Below, piece by piece: positions 9,096 to 29,181 of a stretch of DNA of 64,000 nucleotides (positions within the stretch are counted from its first letter, which is position 1; the number at the start of each line of letters is the position of its first letter). The notes beneath the pieces were generated by a model, which saw only the letters and a program-made list of their open reading frames with translations, had not been told where the DNA came from and searched no databases. The stretch lies in contig JAQISU010000123.1 of assembly GCA_029339505.1 (NCBI GenBank), forward strand, positions 682,001-746,000, written 5' to 3'. Both the position numbers and the translations under genes were made by a program. The stretch is from Unio delphinus. Taxonomy: Eukaryota > Mollusca > Bivalvia > Unionida > Unionidae.

Positions 9096-9315
9096 GATTT
9101 ATTTCTAATTTTGGTATCGAGGAATCATAAATACTGACCATCACTGAGAACTCACAATCTGGTAATGTTGATATTATTGAGATCATTTTGTTTTTTGGGT
9201 TCGTATTTTCTAATTCCATCGGTGTTGTCATTGTTATTATATTCATGTTGTCGCTCTAATTTCGATATCGCGGAATCAAAAATACTGACCATCGCTGAGA
9301 ATTCACTATCTGATA
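8920..9315 (-). repeat. Reiterated gene junction (element 2)
   Basis: A unit of about 150 bp containing the end of the membrane-protein gene and the start of the penton-like gene is present in imperfect tandem copies. The words TACTGACCATC.CTGAGAA (near 9134 and 9286) and GGTGTTGTCATTGTTATTAT (near 9070 and 9222) recur. The minus-strand ORF 8920-9246 is a product of this reiteration. The same reiteration exists in element 3 (33950-34230). Confidence 0.75.
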
Positions 9316-9697: not shown

Positions 9698-9706
9698 TTT
9701 ATTTTA

Positions 9707-9722
9707 AAAACGCTAGCGTTTT
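9707..9722. repeat. Palindrome AAAACGCTAGCGTTTT
   Basis: Perfect 16-bp palindrome in the gap upstream of the membrane-protein gene of element 2. The same core recurs at 3147, 3182, 13697, 22311, 34609 and 43970. Confidence 0.95.
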
Positions 9723-9793
9723 CAATTGTGAATCTAAAGGATTTTCCTTTCAATTGAAACCACTAGTAAAAATCCATAGGATTTTCAGTTTTA

Positions 9794-11122: not shown

Positions 11123-11145
11123 TATTGTTAGCGTAACTTGTGTTT

Positions 11146-11750: not shown

Positions 11751-12149
11751 CTTTTTTTTATACCCAGATCCGCGAGCGGATCCACCAGTTGCCTTTTTCA
11801 ACGCCATCCCTGCTGCGGTCCCAACGGCTCCCAACGCTGCCGCCTTCGCCACCGCTGGGGCAGCCGCTGCAATCAATGCTGGTATTGCGGCTAACAATGG
11901 AAATATACCACCTGATTTTATCATGTTCGCGACTGCAGCTTTCGAAAATTCTATTTGAACTCCTCGCTTATTTTTCATTGCATCATTGAAATGTTTTATT
12001 TGACGATCCGTTAATGATATTTTATGTGTACCTCCGGACATCTGCGCTGGTTTTAACGTTATTGTTGTTCCACATTCCTTAGCGGATTTTGATTTTAATT
12101 TCTTGACCTGACCATCAGTCAGCTTGACACTAACAACACTATATGGCAT
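11652..12149 (-). CDS. pX-like hydrophobic protein (element 2)
   Basis: 165 residues from MPYS, the start shared with other copies (the frame is open to 12164). Two LT(D)(G/R)Q(V/I)K-type motifs are followed by the GGIFPLLAAIPALIAAA hydrophobic segment and a Gly-Lys-rich tail in which LPGTPYSWY occurs. Similar proteins in adintoviruses are compared with adenovirus pX. The frame ends in the protease coding region. The codon run TAT AAA AAA AAG GGA carries the slippery heptamer. Confidence 0.75.
   Translation of the reverse strand: MPYSVVSVKLTDGQVKKLKSKSAKECGTTITLKPAQMSGGTHKISLTDRQIKHFNDAMKNKRGVQIEFSKAAVANMIKSGGIFPLLAAIPALIAAAAPAVAKAAALGAVGTAAGMALKKATGGSARGSGYKKKGKGLYLPGTPYSWYSGKSVNGSGLRKIPGTVY
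11751..11757 (-). promoter_or_regulatory. Putative -1 ribosomal frameshift site A_AAA_AAG (element 2)
   Basis: In the pX frame the codons AAA AAA AAG form a canonical X_XXY_YYZ heptamer. A -1 slip leads straight into the open protease frame with no stop. An imperfect hairpin (ACCAGGAA with a TTC.TGGT-type partner) lies about 20 nt downstream. The same site is in element 3. Confidence 0.6.
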
Positions 12150-12202
12150 TTTATTGTAAAACACATTTATGCTTTCAATTGATCTAATTGGGAAATCCTA
12201 TG

Positions 12203-12219
12203 GAAACTTTTCAAGTTTC
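12203..12219. repeat. Perfect micro-hairpin GAAACTT-TTC-AAGTTTC
   Basis: Seven-base-pair stem with a 3-nt loop in the gap between the capsid and pX genes of element 2; not present at the same place in elements 1 and 3. Confidence 0.9.
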
Positions 12220-12227
12220 ATTTACAT

Positions 12228-13652
12228 TTACAGATTTTCCACTGGTGCATCAACGAGTCTCATTCGTCCGCCAGCCCCTTCTAACAACATTGATTTGTCG
12301 CTGAGAATAACAGCAACCGCTCTATAATCAACACCACCATGATCTATACGAGCCCTAAAATGTATATCAACAACGGATTGCCTTGTTAAATCAAGATGTT
12401 CCAGTGAAAAGTAATAAATTGGATACAAGTTCTTAAAATCGAGCTGAGATATTTGCAAACCAGTATCAACATTTTGATCACGACCCATATATGACAGCAT
12501 CCGATGATACACACGTGCTATTTGGTTGTTTCCGTAATTAAACTGTATATCCTCAGATGGTTCTTGTTGTCCGTTTATTCTCAGTGAAATCTCACTTACC
12601 CCTAACCGATCAAATATCATATGACTGCGTTCTTGGGAACCTAATCGATTCCGATTCTGCAGCGCTATAAATATATGACGTGGAGCTGAAACGCCTTGTT
12701 TTGATGCCAGGTGCCATGTAAATGTAGCATTAACATTATCCTCTTTAGCATCAGTCGTTGTTGTAAGCCAACTTAGCAATGATTTACCACCGGTTTCCAT
12801 AAATGATAGTAGCCGCTCTTCCGTGGTAATTGATGGAGTCCTTACTGACATCCATAATACTATTTTACTCAAAACAACTTTACCTTCATCGGCACCAGAA
12901 CGCCAAATTGCATCATTGTCATTGCCTTTTCGCACTAATGCGATTGTGTGTTTGGCTCCATAGATGACTTTTCTGACATTTCTGCAGAATCCAAATATGT
13001 GATGGAGTGGAATCGCACATGAAAACTTTTTCTCTTGTCCTTCCAATGCTAATTTTCGTGTTGCAAATCCTAAATTGAAATTACCATTAACACCTCCGAG
13101 AATATCAAACGCAGCTCCGGGTCTAGCTCGACGTTCTGGATTAGTTGCTTCTCGTTGATTATCAACTGAAGTGTCTTGCGGTGTTAACACTTTAATGTAT
13201 TGAAGGTGGTCAGCGTTATCAGAGGTATCCTTTGCAAACATCATAGATGGACCAGCCGATCTTGTATAATCATCGGAGTATCTTGCTAGTCCGATTATTG
13301 TTGTTGCAACATCAACCTCGCGGTCTATTGATTCAATTTCTTTTCCATCAATGAGATATCTTGCACTTTCAAATAACGCCATTATACCGTTGTTGACGAA
13401 ACCAACTCGGATATTTGAATCATTTGCATATGGGGTATCAGCTGCAACATTTGTTACAAGTTTTCCTTCTACTTCAATAAATGCTTCACATGGTAAAAAG
13501 TATTTACTGGTATCTTGAACTTGAAGTTCAATTCGCGATCGTAGGTCGGGTTGTATTGCATGATAGGAATAGTATTGATAATCGCGGACGGAATCATCTT
13601 TGCGCATCTTTGCTTCCATATCTAACGCGGGATCAGCTGTTCGTTTAAACAT
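12228..13652 (-). CDS. Major capsid protein (element 2)
   Basis: 474 residues, intact. It keeps all conserved blocks of the family (FVNNGIMALFESARYLIDG, CAIPLHHIFGFCRNVRK, NLYPIYYFSLEHLDLTRQSV) but differs from elements 1 and 3 through the loops at residues 145-200 and in the N-terminus (RTADPALDMEAKMRK). By eye the element 1 and 3 capsids are much closer to each other than to this one, so this copy represents a separate lineage for the virion arm. Confidence 0.85.
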   Translation of the reverse strand: MFKRTADPALDMEAKMRKDDSVRDYQYYSYHAIQPDLRSRIELQVQDTSKYFLPCEAFIEVEGKLVTNVAADTPYANDSNIRVGFVNNGIMALFESARYLIDGKEIESIDREVDVATTIIGLARYSDDYTRSAGPSMMFAKDTSDNADHLQYIKVLTPQDTSVDNQREATNPERRARPGAAFDILGGVNGNFNLGFATRKLALEGQEKKFSCAIPLHHIFGFCRNVRKVIYGAKHTIALVRKGNDNDAIWRSGADEGKVVLSKIVLWMSVRTPSITTEERLLSFMETGGKSLLSWLTTTTDAKEDNVNATFTWHLASKQGVSAPRHIFIALQNRNRLGSQERSHMIFDRLGVSEISLRINGQQEPSEDIQFNYGNNQIARVYHRMLSYMGRDQNVDTGLQISQLDFKNLYPIYYFSLEHLDLTRQSVVDIHFRARIDHGGVDYRAVAVILSDKSMLLEGAGGRMRLVDAPVENL

Positions 13653-13681
13653 TTATAACATTACTAGCGTTTTCAATTGTG

Positions 13682-13708
13682 AAACTCGAAGAGTTTAACG
13701 CTAGCGTT
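13682..13708. repeat. Micro-hairpin AAACTC-GAA-GAGTTT joined to palindrome AACGCTAGCGTT
   Basis: Two perfect inverted repeats lie back to back (13682-13696 and 13697-13708) in the 70-bp gap upstream of the capsid gene of element 2. Confidence 0.9.
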
Positions 13709-13722
13709 TTAATTCTTTATAA

Positions 13723-14223
13723 TCATCGTCGTTGAAAATTCTTCGAATTTCTTTTTTGTTTCAAACCACTTCCTGCTATCGCGTTCATGATAGCGCTATC
13801 TGTTACCGGTGAAGCTGTCAATTGTGACGAAGTCAATTGCGCTAGTTTTTCTTCCATTGCGTTATTTATTACTTTGCTGATTTTTGCAGGCATCACTGTA
13901 GTTGATGGCAGCACTAATGATGAAGTCATCGATGACGAAGTCATTCGTGGTTTCTTTCGCACCAATGATGCTATTTTATCTTTCGCGGCAGAAAATGCCT
14001 TTCCGGCAAGATTTCCAACGAAATTGATTCCCTTATCACGGATAGCATCAATGGCTTTCATTGATAATTGTTTAGCTAACGGCGCCACCTTGGGAGCCAT
14101 TCTTGTAAATAACCCCGCAATGGTATTGCCGAAACCATCTCCGTACCACGCGCGATAAACAGGCAATCGTGAGTTCACCACGTAGACGCTTACGGGTTTA
14201 TCATGGTTATAGTGTATAATCAT
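13723..14223 (-). CDS. Small amphipathic virion protein, pVI/core-like candidate (element 2)
   Basis: 166 residues, longer than the 145 of elements 1 and 3 because of a Ser/Thr-rich insert (residues 95-115, MTSSSMTSS) and an extended tail. The MIIHYNHDKP start, the VYVVNSRLPVYRAWYGDG block and the APK(V)APLAKQLSMKAIDAIRDKG helix are shared. Confidence 0.6.
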   Translation of the reverse strand: MIIHYNHDKPVSVYVVNSRLPVYRAWYGDGFGNTIAGLFTRMAPKVAPLAKQLSMKAIDAIRDKGINFVGNLAGKAFSAAKDKIASLVRKKPRMTSSSMTSSLVLPSTTVMPAKISKVINNAMEEKLAQLTSSQLTASPVTDSAIMNAIAGSGLKQKRNSKNFQRR

Positions 14224-14257
14224 CTTGTTATAAAACTAGTAGTTTTTCAATTAGTGA

Positions 14258-15334
14258 TCAATCGCTTACATCCATAAGATTTTCATCGTTGTGATTTTCA
14301 ACTAATTCAGCAATAAGTTCTCGATATACATTAATGTCCATGATACCACCAGCAAATAATCGTCTACAGATATCAGCGGCCTCGTTAATTATCTCGACGG
14401 AGTTATTTCCGGCTCGTTTCCCTCCGATGAGAACCTCTAACCGTGATATATCACTGAGAATGTTACCAGGGCATGTCACGGTAGAGTCAAAGACATCCTT
14501 TGGATTTTTAATCGAATATCCTTTTCCGCTTGTTTTCTCAGTTGTACCAGTTGCGCCCTGACTATCATCAAGTAATTGCCTTTGTCGGCCTCGACTTTGT
14601 TTTTCTCGTTCTTGTTGTTTTTGTATACCATAACTATCAACTCCTTCTTTAAAAGATCTATACTCAATTGTATCCTTTTTCAAATTACCAGTAATCCCCT
14701 TATTCGTTTTATACAACCAATTAACCCATTCATCTCGGCTTATTTTACTGTTTTTATACTCGTCTTTTAAAAAATCCTTTCTAGAATCAAAGCTTTTGGC
14801 GGCGAAATCACCAAAAGTCGTATAATCCTGGTGTTTCTCCAATTGAGGTCGTTTGATTTGTGTTATAGCTTCTTCGGTGAGTTTGTCTAGAAAGGGGATA
14901 CCTTTTGGGGTGACGACATCAACAAGTTGTGGTTCAGGTGTGGAAACTCTTTGAGTTTCAGGCGCAGAATCATCAATATCAGCTAATTGTTCATACTCGC
15001 GCTGAGTTTTTATATCACTGGATAACTGTTGTATCCCTGCGCGTGTTTGTCCGGTCTCTGCTGCTATCTTTTCAAGCGTATCAAACAGCGGCGCCTTCTT
15101 TACTCGTTCTCGCTCAGGAATATCTCCGTATATCGCTGCTTCAGTTAACTTTTTCACATCTTTGGTCGCACTTGTTATCGGAGTAAACAGTTGTTCACTT
15201 GACACAGAAAAGTCAGTCTGCGCTTGTTGTCGTTGTTGAAGTTTCTCACGAAGTCTGTCTCGAACCGGTATAAACTTTTTAATTGCTAATAGCCGCTCTC
15301 GGGCTAATTTAGTTGTAAGCGATTCACCAACCAT
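14258..15334 (-). CDS. Unrecognised rod-like virion-arm protein (element 2)
   Basis: 358 residues. Conserved N-terminal (LTTKLARERLLAIKKFIP) and C-terminal (EIINEAADICRRLFAGGIMD) parts surround a middle domain with SVSSEQLFTPITSATKDVKK and TGQTRAGIQQLSSDIK, almost identical to element 3 but absent from element 1. Mostly helical. Function unknown. Confidence 0.55.
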   Translation of the reverse strand: MVGESLTTKLARERLLAIKKFIPVRDRLREKLQQRQQAQTDFSVSSEQLFTPITSATKDVKKLTEAAIYGDIPERERVKKAPLFDTLEKIAAETGQTRAGIQQLSSDIKTQREYEQLADIDDSAPETQRVSTPEPQLVDVVTPKGIPFLDKLTEEAITQIKRPQLEKHQDYTTFGDFAAKSFDSRKDFLKDEYKNSKISRDEWVNWLYKTNKGITGNLKKDTIEYRSFKEGVDSYGIQKQQEREKQSRGRQRQLLDDSQGATGTTEKTSGKGYSIKNPKDVFDSTVTCPGNILSDISRLEVLIGGKRAGNNSVEIINEAADICRRLFAGGIMDINVYRELIAELVENHNDENLMDVSD

Positions 15335-15427
15335 ATATTGTTTGTGAACTAAATTTTCAAATGTGAAATCCGGAGGGTTTCCATCATAATTAAAAGCTTA
15401 GTTATTAAATAACTTAGTTATTAAATA

Positions 15428-15706
15428 ATGTACCATCAAGCTAACGTATTCATCTTCGACAGGGTTAAACTGTACGACGCTATCCGCGAGTGTTTCAGAA
15501 ATAACATCGCTGGGGATTTCAGAATTGTAATATCTGAGAATGGCGATGAACGATTTGTGTTAACGACGCGGCAACAAGAACAATTACGTGAAAATGGAGG
15601 CATCGCGGTGATTACTTGCTTCTACGACCAGATCATCCATTATGCACATAACTGCATGAGCAAGTCCAGACTGATGAGTATCCTTTCAGGAGAAAATCCT
15701 ATGTAA
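15428..15706 (+). CDS. Small plus-strand protein unique to element 2
   Basis: 92 residues, start ATG 15428 just after AT-rich direct repeats (TTAGTTATTAAATAA twice). It has mixed alpha/beta character, with no recognised motif. Elements 1 and 3 have no counterpart between the rod-like and 118-residue genes, so it may be an acquired accessory gene. It is the only plus-strand gene in the left arm. Confidence 0.4.
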   Translation: MYHQANVFIFDRVKLYDAIRECFRNNIAGDFRIVISENGDERFVLTTRQQEQLRENGGIAVITCFYDQIIHYAHNCMSKSRLMSILSGENPM

Positions 15707-15820
15707 CTTGTGTAACAAGTGAAGTGTAACAAGTGTTACAAAAAACGCTAAAAAAAAAATAAATAAATTATTTAAATTATTTACGAAAGCCTATTATTTT
15801 TTTTAGTAACACCCACGTGG

Positions 15821-16177
15821 TTAAGATACTGGTCGCTCCTCGTTTAACATTTTTCTAAGATCACGAACTTTAGAACCAATTTCAGCTCGTTTTTGATATT
15901 CTTGGCCAAGCTTTTGACGTATTGCTTCAACGGTGCTAAATAGCGTTATGAATAAATTAATGTCGTTACCGTACAAACAACCATTAATGGATTTTTGAAT
16001 TCCTTTCACGAGCCTGTACATCCTAGGTAAAACATAACGACCCTTACTAGACAGATATTCAATATCTTCATATTCCGAGGTAATCTTGTCAACGTCGAGA
16101 CTTTCAGATAATAATACCCCTTTATTATTTAAATTTGAGATTTCAGCAATTATAGCATTTACGTCATTAATATCCAT
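15821..16177 (-). CDS. Small helical protein, unknown (element 2)
   Basis: 118 residues, homologue of 5115-5471 and 39934-40290 but more diverged, keeping DIEYLSS..YVLPRMYRLVK and the C-terminal helix. Downstream of the stop lies AT-rich DNA with the word TTTATTTATAAATAAA. Confidence 0.55.
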   Translation of the reverse strand: MDINDVNAIIAEISNLNNKGVLLSESLDVDKITSEYEDIEYLSSKGRYVLPRMYRLVKGIQKSINGCLYGNDINLFITLFSTVEAIRQKLGQEYQKRAEIGSKVRDLRKMLNEERPVS

Positions 16178-17378
16178 TATTTATATTTATTTATAAATAA
16201 ATTTATTTATAAATATAGTATACTGTATCTCTAATTAATAAAAAAAAACATATAGGACAACACATCTTTGGAACTCCTTGGGTGCCTTCGCATCCAAGTA
16301 AGCCCAAGGGGACCCGAAACATACATCTCCGGCGGGAGGCCTAAGGTGGCAAACGCGATCTTAGACCGCCCAGAAGATATGCTTGAGGTATAACGTCACA
16401 ACATGGACGGCACAATGCCATATATTTCCACTCGAGTGTTGTGGCAAATTTTAGGCATAACATGTACTTAATTAACTTAATTAAGGATGGATTATAATTC
16501 AATGGAACGATGATGGTAATGATGTGGGCGTGGTAAACCAAACCAACATGGCAACCCATGAAATCGAATTCATGGTTGCATGAGTTAGAAAAAACACCAA
16601 CCCACGCTACCGAGAATGCGATAGCATGGGTTGCCATGTTGGTTTGGCTGAGGGGGACCGCCCTCCCACCCCCCCAATTAATAGAAAAAAACATCTTCCG
16701 TTTCGCCATCAAATAATGTATCTGCTATGGGGACCGAACACGTAGTTGATAGATCTATGTTTACAAGACAAACACGATACCATTACACCACGAACAGTCA
16801 TACAGAATAGAGATTTTTTAATATATATATATATCTGATATACTTAACAATAAGAGATTTTTAAAATAGACAATTTTATGCTGCAACAATGAGAAATATT
16901 TTAAACAAAATAATACAGTTGTTTAATAAAACAGCGTTTTTATACTCTGTTATAATTCTCTAGATAAAATACATTCACATACAAGGAATTTTAACCACGC
17001 CCACCTACTTCAATGAATAGGAAACACTCGCGTTCTGGCTGAGCGAACATAGGTAATGCGTTAGATTATAAAGAATTTTTGTACTGAAAAGAACGAGTTA
17101 GCTGTCTGCTTTACTGCTAGTCCACCCACCCCCACACATGAGATATGTAGATAAATAAAAATAATAATGCAGTTTTAGCCCACAAGCGACAATAAAAAGT
17201 TTTATTCTCTATCGAAAACTCATGCATTATATCTCCATTACATTCACGTGGGCGCGCCTAGTCAAGGTATACAGGTAATATAGCAGGCGACAAATTCCTT
17301 TGACATCATAATACAAGGGAACTTAGTAGGTAGAGTGTGAATTGTAGTGCGGATTTATCCATAAAGGATTTATCTCCC
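16178..17378. other. 1.2-kb non-coding region with structured segments (element 2)
   Basis: No protein is supported. A segment at 16255-16420 has stems GGCGG/CCGCC and CTAAG/CTTAG (16331-16372). The segment 16545-16815 is homologous to the element 1 module. The rest (16820-17378) is AT-rich with no clear feature. Confidence 0.6.
16545..16815. ncRNA. Candidate structured RNA / tRNA-like module (element 2)
   Basis: Inverted repeat CATGGCAACCCATG ... CATGGGTTGCCATG encloses the hairpin of CATGAA with TTCATGG, as in element 1. A tRNA-like block follows on the minus strand near 16700-16800 with A-box-like GTGGTGTAATGGTATC and a CTTGTAAA loop. The structure is conserved while single-strand regions differ. 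It is not a convincing functional tRNA. Confidence 0.4.
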
Positions 17379-17879
17379 TTAAATAGTTTCAGTGTATACG
17401 AACTTTATTTTATGACCATTTTTTTTAGACAGAGATGTTTTAATGATTTTTTCAGCAACAAATCGAATTGAAGTACTACAAATATCGAAATATTTTCCAG
17501 CCGCATTTATCGACTGAAAGCTTCTCTCTTCATTATTTTCTAAATCAAACGATTTCACACCCTTGGGATGTTTTGCGTGCCTACCAGCGTTGCTTTTTAA
17601 AAGGTTATCGCGCTGCGAGACGGCTTGAAGATTCCCAAGACAATTATCAGTCTTCACGCCATTTATGTGATCAATCACAAGACCGTCTTCGATTAATCCG
17701 TAAAATGCTTGATAGATGGCTCTGTGACAGAGATACTTCTTCCTCCCAGCTGAAAACATCAAATACCCCATATTATTCAGATACCCAACCGGTTCTTTGA
17801 GTCTGCGGTGCCTGACAACACCATCACTAGAGGCTTCGTAATTAGCAAGCACTGGGTGAGGTCTGAAATCTTGGCTCAT
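17379..17879 (-). CDS. NUMOD4-HNH homing-type endonuclease (element 2)
   Basis: 166 residues. The N-terminal NUMOD4-like segment (YEASSDGVVRHRR) and HNH core with LCHRAIYQAF, VIDHINGVKTDN and NLQAVSQRDN match phage- and virus-type homing endonucleases; a C-terminal DNA-binding-like helix-turn-helix region follows (INAAGKYFDICSTSIRFVA). Such enzymes cut DNA at specific sites and spread themselves. It is free-standing between the non-coding region and the zinc-protein gene. Intact here, truncated by TAG in element 3, absent from element 1. Confidence 0.8.
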   Translation of the reverse strand: MSQDFRPHPVLANYEASSDGVVRHRRLKEPVGYLNNMGYLMFSAGRKKYLCHRAIYQAFYGLIEDGLVIDHINGVKTDNCLGNLQAVSQRDNLLKSNAGRHAKHPKGVKSFDLENNEERSFQSINAAGKYFDICSTSIRFVAEKIIKTSLSKKNGHKIKFVYTETI

Positions 17880-17892
17880 TTGTATAATAATA

Positions 17893-18219
17893 CTACTTGT
17901 CTAATTTATTATCTGCTTTAATTATAAATCTCTGGATATAATCTTGAGGGGTTTTTATGACTTTGTCCTTGATTTTATCAAGGATGACAGAGTCAATGAT
18001 TCGTTTGTCATAGTAGCGCTTTAGTTCCCTGTATCGTTTACCCCCACAAGCAAGGCATAATTGCGATTTTCCTCTAACACCCACCCCACATTGGAGGCAT
18101 GGGAGAGGGCCTTTTGAACCGTTTCTCACGCTTTGCATATGATACCCACAGAATTCACTTCTGCAATATTTGTTACACGGGGTTGTAGATCCAATCATTA
18201 GCCACTTGCAGTGATTCAT
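17893..18219 (-). CDS. Cys-rich zinc-binding protein (element 2)
   Basis: 108 residues starting at MNHCKW. It keeps the C-x3-C-x4-C-x2-H cluster, the CLQCGVG/CLACGG ribbon and the RELKRYYDKR helix; the acidic tail is shorter. The region after the helix holds a hairpin of TCCTTGA with TCAAGGA (17966-17984). Confidence 0.65.
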   Translation of the reverse strand: MNHCKWLMIGSTTPCNKYCRSEFCGYHMQSVRNGSKGPLPCLQCGVGVRGKSQLCLACGGKRYRELKRYYDKRIIDSVILDKIKDKVIKTPQDYIQRFIIKADNKLDK

Positions 18220-18261
18220 TATACTATATTTTTCTATTTAAATACTTGTTTTAATTATAAC

Positions 18262-18500
18262 ATGGAGGAGTTCAAGAGATTATCGAAAATTAAGCCCTGG
18301 AAAAATACTAAATTCAATCTTGATAGGGAGTTCCAAAGATTATCGAAAATCAAACCTTGGAAAAATACTAAATTCAATCTTGATAGGGAGTTCCAAAGAT
18401 TATCGAAAATCAAACCTTGGAAAAATACTAAATTCAATCTTGATAGGGAGTTCCAAAGATTATCGAAACTTAAGCCTTAGAGAAATACTAAATTCAATCT
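18262..18500 (+). repeat. 60-bp tandem repeats at polymerase N-terminus (element 2)
   Basis: Four units encode about 20 residues each (EFQRLSKIKPWKNTKFNLDR), the last with a nonsense codon. Element 1 has one unit; element 3 has an independent expansion with a longer unit. Confidence 0.92.
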
Positions 18501-21500
18501 CGATAGAGTCTCTGATACACCAAAACGTCTAATCGGTGATAGAACTATACTCGGTAAAATCAGGGAGTGTTTTAATGAATTCTACCGAGACGGTGCAGCA
18601 TACTGTTGGTCGACATTTCGAATTATTGATGAAGATGTCAATGTACCCATCATCGATGCTACTATGAACGATAAAAGAGCAGCTGAGATAATTTCACACC
18701 TTGGTGATATTGCAAAGCAATTTCCATCCAAAGGGGAAATTCAAAGATGGAAATCCAAAGGTGGAAATCCAAAGGATTTCAAGCAAAGCAATTCCCAACA
18801 AAGCAATTCCAATCAGAAGTATTTTTTCAGAATAAAATTCATTATCGAAGTCGAAGGCAAATGGATTATTAGGGATAAATTTGAACCAATCCTCAAGGAT
18901 AAAAAAACTGTCATTGTAAGTAAAGATTCCAAACCAGGAATTCTAACTGGAATTGACAAACCATACTACGAAAGATCCTATCCCGTAACAGCTATGGTTT
19001 ATGGGATATATCCGTTAAATGATAAACCCGATATTGCAAAACTAGCTCCTATGAAATATTCACCGTTGACTTCGTCAAGGCTCAATTGTGTAGCAACACG
19101 GGTAATGGAACACTTCACAAATGCATCCCGAGGAAATAAACTAACTGATCTGCGACGTAGGAAAATAACCGAATGGGAACTGACAGTGAAACAGCACGGT
19201 GCAAAGATTTCTGATATAGCTAAATTAGAAGCATCATTAAAATTCCCAATATCAGTAACAACAATAACCGGAGAAGTATTATACGAACCGAAATATCAAT
19301 CGCGAGGGGCTCCAATACAAATTATTGATCATAACGAACACGCGTGGACACCTGCAGTAACAATATTTCCACGAGATAGAACCGTGAGATATATCCCCCG
19401 GAAATTTTCCGGGGAATTTTCCGGGGATGTTTTCTATGAAGAGAAATTATTTGATGCTATTCATGCGTTGTGTAAAGATGATCCTGTGTCAGTGTGGTTA
19501 CTTAGTAGTGCTGGTTCCGAATCAGGATTTGATCAATTTGTAAGACCAAATGGTGAATTATATCGCGTTGAAGAATTAGATAACAGAATGAGAAAAATCG
19601 CTAATGATTTTTCACCGGAGAGTTCCCATGAAAAACTATTGACGGATAGTTTTACTATTCCATCAGTGGTAGCTCACTTCGCAAGAGAAAAAAACTCATG
19701 GCGTCCAACACGAAGTGATTTTCTCGAGGACGTTAAATTGAGTTGCATCGAATTTGGTCATGGAGGACTGTGGAATACAAAATACCATCGTGACGGTATG
19801 ATTTCAATTGATATATCCGCGTGTTATCCTGGAAGTTTTCTCGGGTATGGGGAATGCGCTGAATACTTCAAACGATTTGGACACCCCACGCATGAAATGA
19901 CTCGTGTTGCGATTAATGGACCATTGCCTGATTTTGATTTAACCGGATTCGCTCGTGTGATATCATTTGAACTCGCTACAGGGTTACATCCGTGTAGTTA
20001 TGTTTGGCTCGGTAGACACCTATCTGAAAAACACTGGATGCCAATAGTGCTATTGAGATATATGATTGATTGTGGCATGCTGATATCGTTGATTGTTTCC
20101 GAAGCTATTATATACTATCGAGCTCAGAAAGAAGTTTGGCTACCACAACCCGATCTAGATCGTATAATTAGCGAACTGCGAAAACAGTTTCCAGAAGAAC
20201 AAATCATGAATTGGTCTAAGAAGTTATTTGAAATTAAAAAAGAACAAGCAAAAGATTTTGGACGAAGAATAATCGGTAAATTTACCCAGGGTGGACGATA
20301 CGACAACGCAAAATACTCTTCGCGGTTGATCATAGATGTCGCTGAATACGATTTTATTGTAGCGGATTTAATGAAACAGGGAAAACTTGTATCCCGTAAG
20401 GATGCTTTTCTATCCAATGGTGAGAAATTAGGTACGGTTGTTACCTACTGTGATGGATATAATTCCCAGTACACACATTTGAGAAGTTCAATGCTAGCCT
20501 ATGCTTCTATTAATCTATTTTCGATGATAAATAGATTTCCTAATACCGCGGTTAGAGTAGCCACTGATTCGATGTATATACACAATAAGTACAAATCAGC
20601 TGTAGCGGCATTCACAGATCCGGAGGAAGCGTGGGGGCGTTGGCGATTTAAAAAAGAGATGCTACATGAGTATTGTGAATCCGCAGACGTTGCCATGGAT
20701 GATAAATATCTTTGTTGTAACCGTATTGAAATTCAATCAGAATTTTCTAATGCACCACCTGTATCTGATCCAGTATGTAGATATAAGACAGTTTATTTAA
20801 ACGGTTGTGGTGGGTCAGGAAAGACAACTCGTGCAATTGAATTATTTCGTCGTGGAAACACTAGCGTTTCTAACATGATTGTGCTAACACCGACTCACAG
20901 ACTCGCCAGAGAGATGATACAACGAGGGGTAAATGCTTGCACTTATCACAGTTTTTTTCGATGGAAAGGTGACAAATGGACTCCTGAGCGTATGGGTGAT
21001 AAATTCATTCCTGAAATCATAATTTGGGATGAAATATGCACAGTGTCATTAGATGTATTAAAAACATTTCTTGAGTGGTTGTTAAACAAAAACACAAAAG
21101 TCGTCATGTGCGGGGATCACGGCCAACCACCACCATTTGTCGGTGCATCTCCACATGAATGGCTAAAGGGTTTTGTAGACTACTATGAAGAAATCACCAC
21201 TGATTATAGATCACTTGATGAACGATTACGCGAGTTCAAAGCGCTAATTAGATTACAACCGGATAGAATCCAATGCGAAATAGCACGTGAAATAATTTCA
21301 GAAACTCCCATGAATGATTTCTGGGAAGCGTGGAGACCAAACGATTTGATCATTGCAAGTAGAAAAATAGTCAGGGATACACTTCAGATGAAGTTATTTG
21401 AAATGCATAAAGAAAAATTTGCAACGCTTCCAGTACCCCTTTGTTAAAGGCCATCGGATACACGAAAACAAAACATTGAAGTTGATATTCCAGGACAGAG

Positions 21501-22058
21501 TGAAAAACAAATTCTCGTATTAAATGATATTGTGCTGGTTGATATCAATGTCGTTGAAGATGCATTGCGTGCTAATAAATCCCCGTGGACGCTAGGATAC
21601 GCAGCAACAATACACTCTTCACAGGGATTGACTATATCGAATACAATTGTTTGGATGGTGGATAATCACATCGAATGGTCGAATTTAATCTATCTCGCAG
21701 TATCCAGAGTACGAAGAATAAATCAGCTTCGAAGAATTGTCCTGACAGAGTCAGGCGATGATAATGACACAACAATAAGTGATATTGATGTTAGCATCAT
21801 TAATAAAAAACTCTCCGGTTACAAACAACAGGACAAAAAAAGCAACGAGAATTTGATATTGATGCTGAACTAATAATCACTTTGAAGAAACAACAGAATA
21901 ATCACTGCGCAAGTTGCAATTGTATAATGCGTTGGCAGTATTCGGATAAGGATCCTCGCCAATTCACCGTAGACAGAAAAAATAACAATCTCGGTCATGT
22001 CAGAAATAATGTGATGTTGACTTGTCTTGAGTGCAATAGACGCAAAGGCGCTAGTTAA
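18262..22058 (+). pseudogene. Polymerase-helicase-HNH gene with two nonsense codons (element 2)
   Basis: The conserved start is ATG 18262, followed by four 60-bp repeats. A TGG-to-TAG change in the fourth repeat (18478) breaks the frame. The main open part (18664-21447, 927 codons) contains polymerase motif A (ISACYPGSF), motif B-like GRRIIGKFTQGG, motif C (ATDSMYI) and the helicase Walker A GCGGSGKTT. TAA at 21445 replaces a Tyr codon seen in the other copies, after which helicase motifs continue (TIHSSQGLT). The HNH tail is out of frame from 21842. It also carries lineage-specific inserts of micro-hairpins at 18709-18800 and 19396-19426. Confidence 0.85.
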
Positions 22059-23013
22059 GACCATGCGGTGGCAATTGAGTATCCTCGGGAATCACTTGTA
22101 GTTGTTGTCGAGTAAAACCCCGCTGAGGGGCAGTTGAATCCAGTTTATAGACTGGAGGTCTACCAGTTGATCGTGTTATACTAGATATCTTATGCGTAGT
22201 GACGCTCCAAATAGGATCAGTAGCCCTTTTTCTACCCCCTTCAAGCTCTCCTGGTTCGTATAAGTACCTCACAATGACATTACTACCAAGAATTGGTTGG
22301 GAAACGCTAGCGTTTCTAGGGAAATCTTTTTGTGGTTGTACGGGTATTGACTTCTTTTTAATCGCGTTGATAGGTTTCATGTTGATTGTTCTAGTAATCT
22401 CGTTATTCAGTGCAGTAATCACAGATGGTAATCTTTTAACCCATTCACGGGATCGCTTTTCTTGAATGAATTCTTTTGCGTATTGATATCCAAATAACCG
22501 CTCAGCAATCGTCCGATTAAATCGTTCGACAATGGCCTGATCGCGATGTAGCGCAGTATGCCCTCGTCGTATGGTGACATTATGATTTTTCATTGTAGAT
22601 AGAACTGCACCCTGAAATTCCTTGCCAGGATCAACCTGCAAGAGATTCGGCCAGTGCAGAGGACCTCGTCGATAAATCCTTTCAAATGCAGAAGCAACTT
22701 CAGTGGCTGATTTTGTTTTTAACGGTTCTGCTTCTTTGTATCGACTTGCAATATCAACTACGGTTAACGCGTATTTGTAACCACGATCATGTGGCAGAAA
22801 TAATATATCAGCCTGATGAACTTCATTAGGAGCAGTCACATCAAAATGCGAGAATTGAATTTGTTTAGGTGGTGGTAGATAAATTTGCCATAGTGCCTGT
22901 TTGGATAACCAATCCGCCGCTGTAGTTTTTTTCACTTTTGCAGCGCTAGCGAGTTTATGTACTGCTGATTTACCCCTCCAGTATCCTCTTGGGGAATAAT
23001 AAATTGATTCCAT
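22051..23013 (-). CDS. Retroviral-type DDE integrase (element 2)
   Basis: 320 residues from ATG 23013 (MESIYY); the upstream GTG extension is not a eukaryotic start. The core rve domain holds the three acidic residues: Asp in HQADILFLP, Asp in LLQVDPGKEF and Glu in QAIVERFNRT. A C-terminal chromatin- or DNA-binding-like beta region (VIVRYLYEPGELEGGRKR) follows. It is known in Polintons to insert the element and create 5-6 bp duplications. The stop overlaps the end of the polymerase/HNH region tail to tail. The start lies 5 bp after the PLA2 stop. A palindrome (22311-22326) has been inserted in frame before SQPILG. This is the only apparently intact integrase of the window. Confidence 0.9.
   Translation of the reverse strand: MESIYYSPRGYWRGKSAVHKLASAAKVKKTTAADWLSKQALWQIYLPPPKQIQFSHFDVTAPNEVHQADILFLPHDRGYKYALTVVDIASRYKEAEPLKTKSATEVASAFERIYRRGPLHWPNLLQVDPGKEFQGAVLSTMKNHNVTIRRGHTALHRDQAIVERFNRTIAERLFGYQYAKEFIQEKRSREWVKRLPSVITALNNEITRTINMKPINAIKKKSIPVQPQKDFPRNASVSQPILGSNVIVRYLYEPGELEGGRKRATDPIWSVTTHKISSITRSTGRPPVYKLDSTAPQRGFTRQQLQVIPEDTQLPPHGLN
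22311..22326. repeat. Palindrome GAAACGCTAGCGTTTC inside the integrase gene
   Basis: In-frame insertion adding codons absent from elements 1 and 3 at the same site. Confidence 0.93.
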
Positions 23014-23017
23014 ATTA

Positions 23018-23376
23018 TTAATTACCAGCACCCATCATCAATTTGCCTTTCATAGCTGATTTTACCAACCACGAAGCCAACTTTTCTTTAAAAGATTTAT
23101 CAGGAATAGCATTTAACGCATGAATTAATTTCACATCCGCGAGATGCCTGTTTTGCAGATTGCTGCTTTTATATGCAACATCATGAGCATGACACGCCTT
23201 ATCAATAGCGTTTATCGGATACTCGCCGGATCGGGGTTGATTTTGATCATCAAGTCTGATATCTAATCGTGTTCCGGGACCACAGTAGCTATATCCTGGA
23301 AGGTGCTTTTCTCCGGGGTACTTTGCCCATGGGGTTCCAGGGAGCTTTGTCAATTTGGCTGCGATATCACCTCCTC
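23018..23376 (-). CDS. Parvovirus-type phospholipase A2 domain, -1 frame of zinc-ribbon gene (element 2)
   Basis: The frame has the PLA2 calcium loop YCGPGT and the catalytic His-Asp pair in DKACHAHDVAY, as in parvovirus VP1 unique regions and some adintoviruses, where it opens endosomal membranes during entry. No ATG precedes the domain: the first possible codon used by ORF callers is TTG (23353), and homology with the other copies (KRGGDIAAKL) extends upstream of it to the slippery heptamer. Expression as an extension of the zinc-ribbon protein by -1 frameshifting is inferred. A hydrophobic-basic C-terminus ends in GAGN. Confidence 0.85.
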
Positions 23377-23556
23377 GTTTTTTTTAAAAACATCTCCGGA
23401 TTGTAAAATCTTTGATTTTGTAGAAATAAATCTAAACTTTTTTATACCACATGTTGCACATCTACCAGTTAGTGCTGATCTGTTATTTTTAGTTGTAACC
23501 GTCGTCACATCATTTGTGCTAGTACGCGTTTTACACTTCACACAATATAGATCCAT
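23350..23556 (-). CDS. Small zinc-ribbon protein (element 2)
   Basis: 68 residues: MDLYCVKCK and CATC supply two CxxC pairs around a basic TKNNRSAL segment, a viral YCVKCK-type ribbon (DUF5679-like, from memory). The frame ends 26 bp inside the PLA2 frame. The start is only 5 bp from the divergent ATPase start. The A_AAA_AAC heptamer lies 27 nt before its stop. Confidence 0.75.
   Translation of the reverse strand: MDLYCVKCKTRTSTNDVTTVTTKNNRSALTGRCATCGIKKFRFISTKSKILQSGDVFKKNEEVISQPN
23377..23383 (-). promoter_or_regulatory. Putative -1 ribosomal frameshift site A_AAA_AAC (element 2)
   Basis: The zinc-ribbon frame reads TTT AAA AAA AAC GAG. The heptamer is the classic eukaryotic viral slippery sequence. 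The -1 frame is the PLA2 frame and is open. It is conserved at the same codon in elements 1 and 3. Confidence 0.75.
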
Positions 23557-23561
23557 AATTT

Positions 23562-24233
23562 ATGTATAGAGATATGAATATAATTGATTTTTCAGCGACT
23601 AAAATAAGAGAACCAGTTAAGCATCATGCAGCGCTACCAAACTCTATCCGCGCAATTATAATCGGGCCATCTGGATCCGGTAAAACGCAATTGTTGCTCA
23701 ATTTAATAATGAGATGGATGAAGTGGGATAAGTTGTATTTAATTGCCCCTAGCGTAGATGATCAACGATGTTATGAAGTGTTAAAAGATTTTAACGAGAA
23801 TGCATCAGAAATTAAGGGTGAGAACGCCATTGATTTTATAACTGATATTGACGAGGCGCCATCCGTGGATGACCTTGATGGGAGTATTAACAATTTAGTC
23901 GTATACGACGATGTGATGTTAGACAATCAAAAAAACCCAGCTAGAATATTTTCCCGGGGGCGTCACAAAAACACTGATGTGATATATGTCACTCAACGCT
24001 ACACTCAGATTCCAAAAGTGATCAGAGATAACTGTAATATTCTTGCTGTGTTTAACGGCGTTGATACACATACGCTACGAAATATTTGGCAGACATGGTG
24101 TTCCGATATGGACTTCAATCAATTTAAAAATTTCTTTAGTCATGCTCAGTCAACCCCGCATGGATTTGTAACAATAAATTTACATGATCCTCGGACACGA
24201 TATCGTATCGGACTCGATCAAATATTTGTTTGA
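23562..24233 (+). CDS. FtsK/A32-type genome-packaging ATPase (element 2)
   Basis: 223 residues. Walker A GPSGSGKTQ at about residue 35, Walker B NNLVVYDD near 110, followed by the RGRHKNTDVIYVTQR segment (sensor and arginine-finger-like). This family pumps viral DNA into capsids in Polintons and nucleocytoplasmic viruses. ATG at 23562 or the conserved second Met (MNIID, 23574) could start it. It runs divergently from the zinc-ribbon gene and ends at the right terminal repeat. Confidence 0.9.
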   Translation: MYRDMNIIDFSATKIREPVKHHAALPNSIRAIIIGPSGSGKTQLLLNLIMRWMKWDKLYLIAPSVDDQRCYEVLKDFNENASEIKGENAIDFITDIDEAPSVDDLDGSINNLVVYDDVMLDNQKNPARIFSRGRHKNTDVIYVTQRYTQIPKVIRDNCNILAVFNGVDTHTLRNIWQTWCSDMDFNQFKNFFSHAQSTPHGFVTINLHDPRTRYRIGLDQIFV

Positions 24234-24439
24234 AATCATTTATTATTTTTGTTAACCCAGTGATGAAATCACTAAGCAGCAGAGAGGGTGGATGACCACA
24301 TCGTTGCGACCAAAATTGATTAAAAAATCGTAAAGTCTCCGTTTGCTAAATGGAGACTTATTTTTTTTGGTTAAAATAAGGTTTCGTAGGAAGCATTATT
24401 TTTGCTTGAAATCGTGGTCTGTTCACCCTCTCTGCTGCT
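24232..24439 (-). repeat. Right terminal inverted repeat of element 2
   Basis: Inverted copy of 7507-7714. It begins just downstream of the packaging ATPase stop and ends at the junction with the resumed polymerase gene of element 1. Confidence 0.93.
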
Positions 24440-27400
24440 GCAGCAGTGATAATCTCACGTCTTGGGGAAGAAAGAAATTTTTTTCGAATAAAATTCCTTA
24501 TCCGTGATAATGGAAAATGGATCATTAGGGACAAATACGAGCCTATTCTTAAGGACAAAAAAACTGTCACTGTGACTCAGGATTCAAAACCAGGAATTTT
24601 GACTGGATTGACAAACCCTACTACGAAAGATCTTATCCTGTCACAGCAGTTGTTTACGGGATATATCCGCTCAATGACAAACCTGATATTGCAAAACTAG
24701 CACCCATGAAATATTCGACAGGGCTCAATTGTGTAGCAGCACGAATAATGGAACACTTCACAAATGCGTCCCGGGGAAATAAACTAACTGATCTAAGACG
24801 AAAAAAAATAACCGAATGGGAACTGACAGTGAAACAGCATGGGGCAACAATTCAAGATATAGCCAAATTAGAAACATCATTGAGATTTCCAATATCGGTA
24901 AGGACAATCACCGGTGAAGTATTATACGAATCGAAATATAATAAAAATGGAACCCCAATACAGATTATTGATCATAACGAACACGCGTGGTCATCTGCAG
25001 TAACAATATTCCCACGGGATAGAACCGTAAAATATCTATCCCAAACTCTGTTTGGAACCGAAGAGTTTTTTTCAGAGCAGAAATTATTTGATGCTATTTA
25101 CCATTTGAGTAAAAAAGATCCTGTGTCAGTGTGGCTATTTCATAGTACTTCAGACGAAGAATGTAGATTTGATCAGTTTGTAAGGCCCAACGGAGAATTA
25201 TACCGTACTGAAGAGCTGCATAATCAAATGAAACAACTAGCTAGTGAGTTTTCTCCCCAGAGTTCTCTGGGGGAAGACAACGATCAATTATTAGCAAACT
25301 GTTTTACACTTCCATCAGTTGTAGCACATTTTGCTAGGAAGAAAAACGCGTGGAAACCAACACGAAGTGAGTTCTTATCAGAGGTCAAATTGTCCTGTCT
25401 TGAATACAGCCATGGAGGATTATGGAACACAAAATACACCGCTGATACCGTTATTTCAGTTGATATGATTGCGTGTTATCCAGGAAGTTTTCTTGGGTAT
25501 GGAGAGTGTGAGAAATATTTCAAACGATTTGGACACCCTACACACGAAATGACCCGTGTTGCTATTAATGGACCACTGCCACATTTCGATTTAACCGGAT
25601 TCGCTTGTGTAGTATCATTTGAAATGGCTGAAGGACTTCATCCGTGTAGTTATCTTTGGATTGGTAAACACATGTCTGAAAAACACTGGATGCCAATAGT
25701 GTTATTACGGTATATGCTTGATTGTAAGATGTTAAAATCATTAATTGTCAGTGATACAATTATATCCTATCGAGCACAGAAATCAGTCTGGTTACCACAA
25801 CCTGATCTAGAAAAAATAATTAGCGAAGAGCGAAAACTGTTTCCAAATTTCAGTGAACAACAAATCATGGATTGGTCCCAACAGTTATTTGAAATCAGAA
25901 ACAATAAAGCAAAAGACCTTGGACGAAGAATAATCGGTAAATTTACCCAAGGTGGCAAAGATGATAATACGAGATATTCTTCACGATTGATTATAGACAA
26001 TGCTGAATACGATTTTGTAATCACGGATTTAACGAATAGGGGCCTATATGTCAATCGTAAGGACGCATTTATGTCCGATGGAACCAAATTGGGTACAATT
26101 GTTACTTACACTGATGGATACAATCCGCAGTACACACATTTGAGAGCTTCTATGCTTGGTTATGCTTCTATCAATCTGTTTTCAATGATCAATAGATTTC
26201 CTACCACCGCAGTTAGAGTTGCTACTGACTCATTTTACATAAATAGCAAAATGGCTGATTTTAAGGCTACTGGCAACGAGAATTGGGGGTCATGGAGAAT
26301 TAAGAAAGAAATGCTTCATGATTATATTCCATCAGCAGATGTTACCATTGAAAATAATTACTTAGAAAGCAATCAGTGTTCAGAATTTTCTAGTGCACCA
26401 CCGATTTTTGATCCAATATGCCTGTATAAAACAGTTTATTTAAACGGTTGTGGCGGGTCAGGAAAAACAACCCGGGTAATTGAGTTATTTCGTGTTTCCA
26501 ATCCAAACATGATTGTACTAACACCGACTCACAGACTTGCAAGAGAAATGATACAGAGAGGGGTAAATGCCTGCACTTATCATAGTTTCTTTAGATGGAA
26601 GGGAGATAAATGGACTCCTGAGCGCATGGGAGAGAAATTTATCCCTGAATTCATCATGTGGGATGAAATAGACACAGTGTCAGAAGATGTCTTAAAAATA
26701 TTTCTTGAGTGGTTGTTATTAAAAAATACAAAAGTCGTCATGTGCGGTGATCACGGGCAACCACCACCATTTGTCGGTGCATCCCCCCATGAATGGCTAA
26801 AGGGTTTTGTAGACTATTATGAAGAAATTGATACCGATCATAGATCACTTGATAATGAATTAAAAGAATTTAAGAAACTAATTAGATTACAACCGGATAA
26901 AATCCAGTGTGAAATAGCGCGTGAAATAATTTCGGAAACTCCCATGAATGAGTTTTGGGAAGCGTGGAGACCAAATGATTTAATCATTGCAAGTAGAAAA
27001 ATAGTCAGGGACACACTTCAGATGAAGTTATTTGAATTGCATAAACAAAAATTTGCAACACTTCCAGTGCCCATCTGTTATAGGCCATCGGATACACGAA
27101 AACAGAACATCGAAGTTGATATTCCAGGCCTGACAGAGTCAGGGCGTGAAAAGAAGATTCTCGTATTAAATGATATTTTGCTGGTTGATATCAATGTTGT
27201 TGAAGATGCATTGCGTGCTAATAAATCCCCATGGACGCTAGGTTATGCAGCAACAATACACTCTTCACAGGGATTGACTATATCGGATACAATTGTTTGG
27301 ATGGTAGATAATCGCATAGAATGGTCGAATTTAGTCTATCTCGCAGTGTCTAGAGTACGAAAAATAAATCAACTTCGAAGAATTGTCCTGACAGAGTCAG

Positions 27401-28644: not shown

Positions 28645-28651
28645 GTTGTTA

Positions 28652-29010
28652 TTAATTACCAGCACCTAACATCAATTTACTTTTCATAGCCGATTTTATC
28701 AAAAAGGAAGCCAATTTTTCTTTGAAAGATTTATCAGAAATAGCATTTAACGCATGAATTAATTTCACATCTGCTAGATGCCTGTGCTGCAGATTACTGC
28801 TTTTATAAGATACATCATGAAGGTGACAGGCCTTATCAATAGCGTTTATTGGTTCCTCACCGGGTCGGGGCTGATTTTGATCATTGAGTCTGATATCAAG
28901 TCTTGTTCCCGGTCCACAGTAGCTATATCCTGCAAGGTGCTTTTCTCCAGGGTATTTTGCCCATGGGGTTCCAGGGAGTTTAGTTAGCTTGGCTGCGATA
29001 TCACCTCCTC
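28652..29010 (-). CDS. Parvovirus-type phospholipase A2 domain without own start (element 1)
   Basis: Open from the slippery heptamer at 29011-29017 to TAA 28652, containing YCGPGT and DKACHLHDVSY. Here not even a TTG or GTG gives a sensible start at the domain border, which strengthens the frameshift model. One loop residue differs (LAGYSYC). Confidence 0.8.
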
Positions 29011-29181
29011 GTTTTTTTTTAAAGGTTCCTTGAGTTCCTTGGGTTTAGAAACAAATCTAAATTTCTTTGTACTACATTGTACGCATTTACCAGAAAGCGC
29101 TGATCGGTTATTTTTAGTTGTAATCGTCGTCAAGTCATCTGTGCCAGTACGTTTTTTACACTTCACACAATATAGATCCAT
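28984..29181 (-). CDS. Small zinc-ribbon protein (element 1)
   Basis: 65 residues with YCVKCK and CVQCS. It stops inside the PLA2 frame. CCT TTA AAA AAA AAC GAG holds the heptamer. Start is 17 bp from the divergent ATPase start. Confidence 0.72.
   Translation of the reverse strand: MDLYCVKCKKRTGTDDLTTITTKNNRSALSGKCVQCSTKKFRFVSKPKELKEPLKKNEEVISQPS
29011..29017 (-). promoter_or_regulatory. Putative -1 ribosomal frameshift site A_AAA_AAC (element 1)
   Basis: Same codon position relative to the zinc-ribbon and PLA2 frames as in elements 2 and 3. Confidence 0.75.

What the first reader, a model, noticed from the sequence alone, without database searches (positions are those of the whole stretch)
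23350..23556. Phospholipase A2 probably made by -1 ribosomal frameshifting from the zinc-ribbon gene, conserved in all three copies
In every copy the PLA2 domain has no ATG, lies in the -1 frame of the zinc-ribbon gene, and is open back to A_AAA_AAC (23377-23383, 29011-29017, 46464-46470). Codons before the heptamer differ between copies (TTT AAA, TTA AAA) but the heptamer and frame relation do not. A frameshift would make a minor zinc-ribbon-PLA2 product, much as parvoviruses limit PLA2 to a minor capsid protein. I know of no such report for Polintons or adintoviruses, but could not search.
Basis: partly seen in the sequence, partly recalled or inferred. Interest (0 to 1): 0.86.

Follow-up and report, generated by a model that had tools for sequence, protein, structure and literature searches.

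The report
Slippery-site switch makes viral phospholipase fusion
In thousands of copies of a virus-like element in one eukaryote genome (probably a mollusc), a predicted phospholipase A2 gene sits one base out of step with the zinc-ribbon gene before it, at a run of A's of the kind on which ribosomes are known to slip, so the enzyme is likely made only as a small fused by-product of such slips.

Summary
In all three window copies a DUF5679 zinc-ribbon ORF is followed, in the -1 frame and without an ATG, by a parvovirus-type phospholipase A2 (PLA2) domain, and the frames meet at an in-phase A_AAA_AAC. Whole-genome counts for one linker are 3,651 copies with A9 (-1), 295 with A10 (in frame) and 458 with A8. 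Of the first 100 listed of 13,167 copies with many linkers, 70 are -1; of the first 100 of 2,743 with another linker end, 83. PLA2 is under purifying selection between -1 copies (dN/dS 0.16 over 11 copies; other frames above 1) and open in 10 of those 11. Relatives elsewhere encode the two domains either as one in-frame ORF or in the -1 arrangement; some distant ones have PLA2 with its own ATG. So zinc-ribbon-PLA2 is a real fusion in relatives, and here it is most likely made by -1 slippage. Ribosomal slippage is my choice, but slippage in transcription is not excluded, no clear downstream RNA stimulator was found, and no product was seen. The parvovirus-like 'minor capsid protein' role is untested. 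New variant of a known kind.

The parts
23350..23556 (-). copy 1: zinc-ribbon (DUF5679) ORF, 0 frame, ATG at 23556; 9 codons from AAC of the slip site to the stop
23377..23383 (-). copy 1: A_AAA_AAC in zinc-ribbon phase, inside T5A8C
23018..23383 (-). copy 1: PLA2 domain (PF08398), -1 frame, no ATG, preceded by TAA in its own frame
28984..29181 (-). copy 2: zinc-ribbon (DUF5679) ORF
29011..29017 (-). copy 2: A_AAA_AAC, inside T3A9C
28652..29017 (-). copy 2: PLA2 domain, -1 frame, no ATG (frame open to 29044)
46299..46643 (-). copy 3: zinc-ribbon ORF; 0-frame tail of 55 codons from AAC of the slip site, so the 0-frame stop is not conserved
46464..46470 (-). copy 3: A_AAA_AAC, inside T4A9C
46105..46470 (-). 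copy 3: PLA2 domain, -1 frame, no ATG (frame open to 46518)
22051..23034 (-). rve integrase ORF directly downstream of PLA2 in copy 1 (context)
23559..24233 (+). A32-like packaging ATPase ORF, divergent from the zinc-ribbon gene (context)
7506..24440 (.). element 1 bounded by 208-bp terminal inverted repeats that are 100% complementary

Best explanation
The PLA2 domain of these Polinton-like elements is likely made only as the second half of a zinc-ribbon-PLA2 fusion, when a minority of ribosomes would slip back one base on the A-run that ends in A_AAA_AAC, while ribosomes that do not slip would go on in the zinc-ribbon frame and yield the zinc-ribbon protein alone. Shown: the frame relation, the in-phase heptamer, its dominance in thousands of copies and many linkers, purifying selection on PLA2 between -1 copies, and in-frame fusions of the same two domains in relatives. 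Inferred: that the slip happens, that ribosomes do it, its low level, and a role of the fused PLA2 as a membrane-breaching minor protein like parvovirus VP1.
For: (1) Exact whole-genome counts for the linker CAAGGAACCTTT(A)nCGAGGAGGTGATAT: A9 (-1) 3,651, A10 (in frame) 295, A8 458. (2) Frame-neutral pattern with many linkers: 13,167 matches; of the first 100 listed 70 are -1, 13 in frame, 17 +1; 59 of the 70 have A_AAA_AAC and 9 A_AAA_AAA in phase; 7 of the 9 linker classes with three or more copies are mostly -1. (3) Another linker end: 2,743 matches; of the first 100 listed 83 -1, 4 in frame, 13 +1 (counted by hand). (4) Frame-neutral zinc-ribbon query: only 12 of 150 scored copies have an open frame of 165 aa or more, the size of a fusion; it does not tell -1 from +1. 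(5) PLA2 between -1 copies: dN/dS 0.12, 0.22, 0.14 for the window pairs; 0.162 over 11 copies, against 1.2 and 3.1 in the other two frames; 34 shared synonymous to 16 shared amino-acid changes; 10 of 11 open. (6) Other sources: I read 18 of 28 zinc-ribbon proteins as running past the junction in the -1 arrangement, with at least 14 different linkers (the query held six junction residues of the -1 form); 10 of 12, the query among them, in a search whose length window also admits fusions. (7) Single-ORF fusions of PF18930+PF08398 in relatives. (8) In T5A8 copies such as copy 1 a TAA precedes PLA2 in its own frame, leaving little room for an upstream start or exon. (9) The junction run varies less than an intergenic T9 about 1.5 kb away: 18 of 100 against 28 of 69 deviate, p 0.0015, in differently chosen sets of copies.
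Against: No stability beyond mononucleotide shuffles 5 nt downstream of the heptamer (z -0.7 to +0.9). Alifold: the 80-nt stretch that begins at the C is the most stable of 26 windows in the gene (-16.2, next -14.6), but the one 10 nt on is ordinary (-11.6), so this is at most a weak hint of a stimulator. Slippery heptamers also lie in phase in 24 of the 30 sampled copies that are not -1: they come with the A-run. One of the 18 -1 relatives, P0114, has no such heptamer by its protein sequence. On a PLA2 tree the nine -1 rows do not group (9 changes for 9 rows), as expected if the run often switches state; the in-frame genome rows came from a search biased to in-frame copies, and the elements recombine. 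In-frame copies have dN/dS 0.082, not higher. One linker class of six copies is 3 in frame, 2 -1, 1 +1. A run of 8-10 A's can also slip in transcription. The 0-frame stop is not conserved. No transcript or protein data.
Confidence: 0.58

Rival explanations
1. The fusion is made by slippage of RNA polymerase on the A-run, which inserts one A into part of the mRNAs and puts PLA2 in frame.
For: The run is mostly 8-10 A's, longer than the heptamer needs. Nine of 70 -1 copies have A_AAA_AAA instead of A_AAA_AAC. Slippage in transcription is a known way to reach an overlapping frame (PMC4552492 and PMC1088944, search listing only).
Against: One relative (P0115...LLKNEEV) can hold at most six A's at the junction whichever Leu codon it uses, short for slippage of this kind (codons inferred, and the ribosomal heptamer exists there only if that Leu codon ends in A and Asn is AAC). 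A_AAA_AAC is the form in 59 of 70, which fits the ribosomal heptamer but also simply the Arg codon that follows.
Confidence: 0.2
2. PLA2 is not made in -1 copies. The A-run loses a base often, PLA2 is dispensable or supplied in trans by in-frame copies, and the -1 state spread by hitchhiking and recombination.
For: In-frame copies exist (295 for one linker; 12 of 150). The -1 rows are scattered on the tree. Diversity rises abruptly from 0.1-0.5% in zinc ribbon-PLA2 to 1-5.5% downstream in 69 copies chosen for identical PLA2, so elements are mosaic. Homopolymers in these elements do vary. KKK at the junction goes with the out-of-frame state (6 of 6 against 5 of 18 by my reading), as a mutational hotspot would also give. 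In-frame copies are at least as constrained.
Against: PLA2 is under purifying selection between -1 copies. The in-frame state, one inserted A away, makes up 295 of the 4,404 copies with A8-A10 of one linker and is no commoner than the +1 state (458 there; 13 against 17; 4 against 13; 6 against 13). The commoner linkers, of several lengths, share one phase relative to PLA2. The -1 arrangement recurs in other sources.
Confidence: 0.18
3. PLA2 is reached by splicing from an exon with an ATG, or by a non-ATG start, without slippage.
For: No transcript data exclude it.
Against: In T5A8 copies such as copy 1 a TAA sits directly before the KKRGG stretch in the PLA2 frame, so a splice acceptor or start would have to lie within the few bases after it; relatives encode both domains in one uninterrupted ORF.
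Confidence: 0.04

Closest known systems
-1 programmed ribosomal frameshift sites of the A_AAA_AAC class (astroviruses, PMC3835772, passage seen; MMTV and other retroviruses, recalled)
   Same: same heptamer in 0-frame phase, a -1 ORF open from the site, and a fused product that would be a minor form
   Different: a DNA-virus-like integrated element, a long A-run round the heptamer, no clear stimulator, no product shown
Proposed -1 frameshifts near the 3' end of adintovirus penton ORFs and for hexon-adenain fusions (PMC11071296, passages seen)
   Same: same broad virus group and same type of proposal
   Different: other genes; that text rests on KnotInFrame predictions; the term PLA2 does not occur in it and phospholipase only for polyomavirus VP2
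Parvovirus VP1u PLA2 (PMC12455919, passages seen)
   Same: PF08398 domain with His-Asp and calcium loop; the A2 profile finds four capsid-protein sequences of 723-726 residues (AAV, recalled) at about residues 46-81, E 0.005; PLA2 confined to a minor form (VP1:VP2:VP3 1:1:10 in that paper)
   Different: fused behind a zinc ribbon rather than ahead of a capsid protein, and limited by -1 slippage rather than by alternative transcripts or starts (the latter recalled)
Potyvirus P3N-PIPO transcriptional slippage and slippage in IS elements (PMC4552492, PMC1088944, search listing only)
   Same: slippage gives an extra-frame fusion in a viral or mobile genome
   Different: other polymerases and hosts
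In-frame zinc-ribbon-PLA2 proteins of relatives (P0004, P0005, P0011, P0020 and others)
   Same: same two domains, order and linker position
   Different: one ORF, so the fusion would be the main product

Membership tests
-1 programmed ribosomal frameshift site | X_XXY_YYZ heptamer in 0-frame phase | tested here: met
   (3 of 3 window copies); 68 of 70 -1 copies with A_AAA_AAC or A_AAA_AAA. Some heptamer is also in phase in 24 of 30 copies that are not -1, though never A_AAA_AAC
-1 programmed ribosomal frameshift site | conserved -1 ORF under selection, open from the site | tested here: met
   dN/dS 0.162 over 11 copies, 10 of 11 open
-1 programmed ribosomal frameshift site | conservation of site and frame across diverged copies | tested here: met
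   many linkers in one genome; other sources. Relatives with an in-frame ORF also exist
-1 programmed ribosomal frameshift site | 3' stimulatory stem-loop or pseudoknot 5-9 nt downstream | tested here: inconclusive
   no excess stability; lowest alifold energy at the window from the C, ordinary 10 nt on; pseudoknots not modelled
-1 programmed ribosomal frameshift site | fused protein at a defined ratio | not testable with these tools
   no expression data
Parvovirus-type PLA2 (PF08398) | profile match above the curated cut-off | tested here: met
Parvovirus-type PLA2 (PF08398) | calcium loop GPGT and His-Asp pair (motifs recalled) | tested here: met
   H67, D68, G35 and G37 invariant, P36 and T38 nearly so in 21 rows; calcium loop in 11 of 11 copies; His-Asp by regex in 9 of 11, by eye also in copy 2, where Ser stands for Ala two residues on; lost in L106
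Parvovirus-type PLA2 (PF08398) | PLA2 fold | tested here: inconclusive
   mean pLDDT 71.4, pTM 0.66; no PDB match at E <= 0.001 (a secretory PLA2 at rank 9, E 2.1, below bromodomains at E 1.4-2.0)
DUF5679 zinc ribbon (PF18930) | profile match above the curated cut-off | tested here: met
Polinton / adintovirus | double jelly-roll capsid, rve integrase, A32-like ATPase | tested here: met
Polinton / adintovirus | adenain-like protease | tested here: inconclusive
   Peptidase_C5 E 0.014, below the curated cut-off
Polinton / adintovirus | protein-primed PolB | tested here: not met
   no PolB match in the ORFs scanned (not every ORF of the window); a long ORF with an SF1 helicase end was found. Hence called Polinton-like only
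Polinton / adintovirus | terminal inverted repeats | tested here: met
   208 bp, 100% complementary, 7506-7713 and 24233-24440 (element 1 only)

The most novel reading that the evidence does not exclude
A recombining population of thousands of integrated Polinton-like viruses holds an entry-type phospholipase at low dose by -1 frameshifting. The in-frame, full-dose version arises again and again by gain of one A yet does not spread, so the low dose itself is selected: a DNA-virus counterpart of the parvovirus minor-capsid PLA2, reached by a retrovirus-like slip site.
Probability: 0.4. Interest if true: 0.82.

Novelty: new variant of a known kind. Interest (0 to 1): 0.64.

Why it matters
Slippage to make a minor fusion is a classic device of RNA viruses and retroviruses; a case in Polinton-like DNA elements, repeated over thousands of genome copies, would be a natural laboratory for how such a site is kept, lost and regained. 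It would also tie the PLA2 of these elements to a dose-limited role, which bears on the open question whether Polintons form particles that enter cells by breaching membranes. Where the slip happens can be tested directly by reporter, cDNA and peptide work.

Tried and rejected
Close relatives in viral contigs: none confirmed with the copy-1 PLA2 or with alignment A1 (the tool warns that records very near the window's genome may be left out). Downstream RNA structure: no clear signal; Rfam on the window: nothing at gathering scores. Fold search of the PLA2 model: no significant match.

'The three copies are just broken genes': considered seriously after in-frame copies turned up and the tree scattered the -1 rows, then lowered when frame-neutral sampling showed the -1 state to dominate (in part). 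'The -1 state is universal in the family': rejected, since in-frame fusions and own-ATG PLA2 occur in relatives. 'Assembly noise in homopolymers': made unlikely by 3,651 against 295 and 458 copies and by the same arrangement in other sources; reads were not available. My first script for in-frame PLA2 was one base out of phase and was corrected; only the -1 figures are used. One search had the PLA2 start one base off and was redone. Comparing insertions with deletions at the junction and at T9: the samples disagree (12 of 150 copies have the in-frame length, yet 4 against 9 one-base gains and losses), so I draw no inference from mutation direction.

Full report
What is there. On the minus strand of the window three related elements each carry a small zinc-ribbon ORF (Pfam DUF5679, PF18930) followed by a parvovirus-type phospholipase A2 domain (PF08398) in the -1 frame. 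The two frames meet on an A-run: T5A8C, T3A9C and T4A9C in copies 1, 2 and 3, each ending in A_AAA_AAC read as AAA AAC by the zinc-ribbon frame. No ATG precedes PLA2 in its frame; in copy 1 its own frame is closed by TAA right at the run, in copies 2 and 3 it is open 9 and 16 codons further. Neighbours are an rve integrase, an A32-like ATPase, double jelly-roll capsid ORFs, a weak adenain match and a long ORF with an SF1 helicase end. Element 1 has 208-bp perfect terminal inverted repeats. No PolB was found among the ORFs scanned, so I call the elements Polinton-like.

The product exists as one ORF in relatives. In the protein database, many relatives of PLA2 carry both domains in a single ORF, for instance P0004, P0005, P0007, P0009, P0011, P0019 and P0020 (two of them rescanned). 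Others give a PLA2-frame ORF whose first residues are the zinc-ribbon DNA read in the -1 frame (P0001, P0002, P0013, P0014, P0016, P0021; my reading); all six have KKK at the junction, against 5 of 18 in-frame relatives (my counts, tested). P0057 looks +1, and P0017 seems out of frame at another A-run. Some distant ones have PLA2 behind its own ATG and no zinc ribbon (P0027, P0028, P0038, P0043). A zinc-ribbon query, which held six junction residues of the -1 form, returned 28 proteins: I read 18 as the 0-frame product of a -1 arrangement, with at least 14 different linkers, 3 as +1 (P0106, P0118, P0120), 2 as in frame (P0078, P0098) and 5 as unclear; that search excludes full fusions by length. 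Of the 18, P0114 has no A_AAA_AAx by its protein sequence. A search whose length window admits both forms gave 12 proteins, the query among them: 10 are -1 and 2 in frame (P0020, P0078).

The genome. The window lies in a 2.5-Gb assembly, probably of a mollusc (one hit is from Sinanodonta woodiana, several from Lottia), with a Ras-family stretch at 59245-59634. My first samples were biased: the copy-1 PLA2 query ranks by identity (12 of 150 have a 180-residue open frame) and the full-length P0007 query favours in-frame copies. Frame-neutral sampling gave the answer. Pattern GGAGATGTTTT..CGAGGAGGTGATATCGC: 2,743 matches; of the first 100 listed, 82 have length 37 and 1 has 40 (-1), 4 have 38 (in frame), 9 have 36 and 4 have 39 (+1) (counted by hand). 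Pattern with linkers up to a set length: 13,167 matches; of the first 100, 70 are -1, 13 in frame, 17 +1; the two sets overlap in part. A variant pattern: 28 of 47 -1, 6 in frame, 13 +1, some of them clearly other linkers or chance matches. Zinc-ribbon query: 12 of 150 with an open frame of 165 aa or more (it does not tell -1 from +1). Exact whole-genome counts for one linker: A8 458, A9 3,651, A10 295. So the -1 state is the rule in these samples, and the in-frame state, a single A away, is no commoner than the +1 state.

Selection. Between window copies PLA2 has dS 0.28-0.50 and dN/dS 0.12-0.22, and the same DNA in the other frames gives above 1; the zinc-ribbon core gives 0.09-0.46. Eight further -1 copies were picked by place and linker, not by PLA2; with the window's three, 10 of 11 are open (L106 has a stop and has lost its catalytic His), dN/dS is 0.162, shared changes are 34 synonymous, 16 amino-acid-changing and 1 scored as stop, single ones 17, 18 and 1, over about 77 synonymous and 277 other sites. 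Twenty-six distinct in-frame copies, chosen by a search for in-frame matches, give 0.082, so in-frame copies are no less constrained; they may simply derive from the -1 population. The 0-frame tail after the site varies from 9 to 55 codons, so it seems unimportant. Linkers differ in length, yet the nine classes with three or more copies keep one phase once the T-run is standardised, and 7 of the 9 are mostly -1 (one class is lumped by the script); the zinc-ribbon tail alone would not require that.

Mechanism. A_AAA_AAC is a known slip site (astroviruses, PMC3835772, passage). Ribosomes also slide on A-runs (PMC4363877, abstract), and frameshift mutations in chloroplast atpB are corrected by translational recoding, with an oligoA stretch named in the section titles (PMC8254509, short abstract and outline). 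The review PMC5009743 (passages) gives a herpesvirus case where very low frameshifting on a G-run yields enough product. I therefore favour -1 ribosomal slippage at a low level, giving zinc ribbon as the main and zinc-ribbon-PLA2 as the minor product. Slippage of RNA polymerase on 8-10 A's would give the same protein and is not excluded. Single-sequence folds show no stimulator; by alifold the stretch from the C on is the most stable of 26 windows (-16.2, next -14.6) but ordinary 10 nt on (-11.6), at most a hint. Some heptamer also lies in phase in 24 of 30 copies that are not -1, so its presence alone proves little; the frame state and the selection carry the argument. The comparison with parvovirus VP1, where PLA2 serves endosomal escape and VP1:VP2:VP3 is 1:1:10 (PMC12455919, passages), is an analogy; the PLA2 profile finds capsid-protein chains (AAV, recalled) at E 0.005, while the AlphaFold model (pLDDT 71) has no significant PDB match.

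Against. The -1 rows do not group on the PLA2 tree. The elements are mosaic: diversity is 0.1-0.5% across zinc ribbon and PLA2 and 1-5.5% downstream, in 69 copies chosen for identical PLA2. Hence the -1 state could have spread by recombination, and switching is frequent. What keeps me from 'merely broken' is the pairing of dominance with purifying selection.

Literature. Searches on adintovirus or Polinton with phospholipase, PLA2, DUF5679, frameshift or fusion listed no paper whose title or opening lines describe this arrangement; searches matched more papers than were listed, and most listed papers were not opened. PMC11071296 (passages) suggests -1 frameshifts for adintovirus penton and hexon-adenain. 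PMC3671162 (one passage) has a figure key for PLA2 as the parvovirus capsid domain among Polinton-related maps. PMC11071308 holds none of the terms I looked for. Only open-licence papers were searchable.

Noticed in passing
17379-17900 (-): HNH_3 endonuclease with a NUMOD1-like part inside element 1, a homing-endonuclease-like gene in a Polinton-like element.
   Followed up: no
18481-21873 (+) and 41599-45159 (+): Long ORF with an SF1 helicase end and about 750 N-terminal residues without a Pfam match; no PolB was found among the ORFs scanned. In copy 1 the ORF is split by a stop, in copy 3 it is one ORF of 1186 aa.
   Followed up: partly
7506-24440: Element 1 with perfect 208-bp inverted repeats lies between a second capsid module (607-7258) and a second helicase-integrase-PLA2-ATPase module (24553-29864), as if inserted into another element.
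   Followed up: no
L001-L030, L061-L100: Diversity rises abruptly from 0.1-0.5% in zinc ribbon-PLA2 to 1-5.5% in the downstream genes, so the copies look recombinant; the copies were chosen for identical PLA2.
   Followed up: partly
own genome, linker ending CTCAAGGAACC: A subfamily in which the C after the A-run is replaced by A (A10 then G) keeps the -1 state: 4 of the 12 copies of this linker in the sample.
   Followed up: no
59245-59634 (-): Ras-family coding stretch, probably a host gene exon.
   Followed up: no
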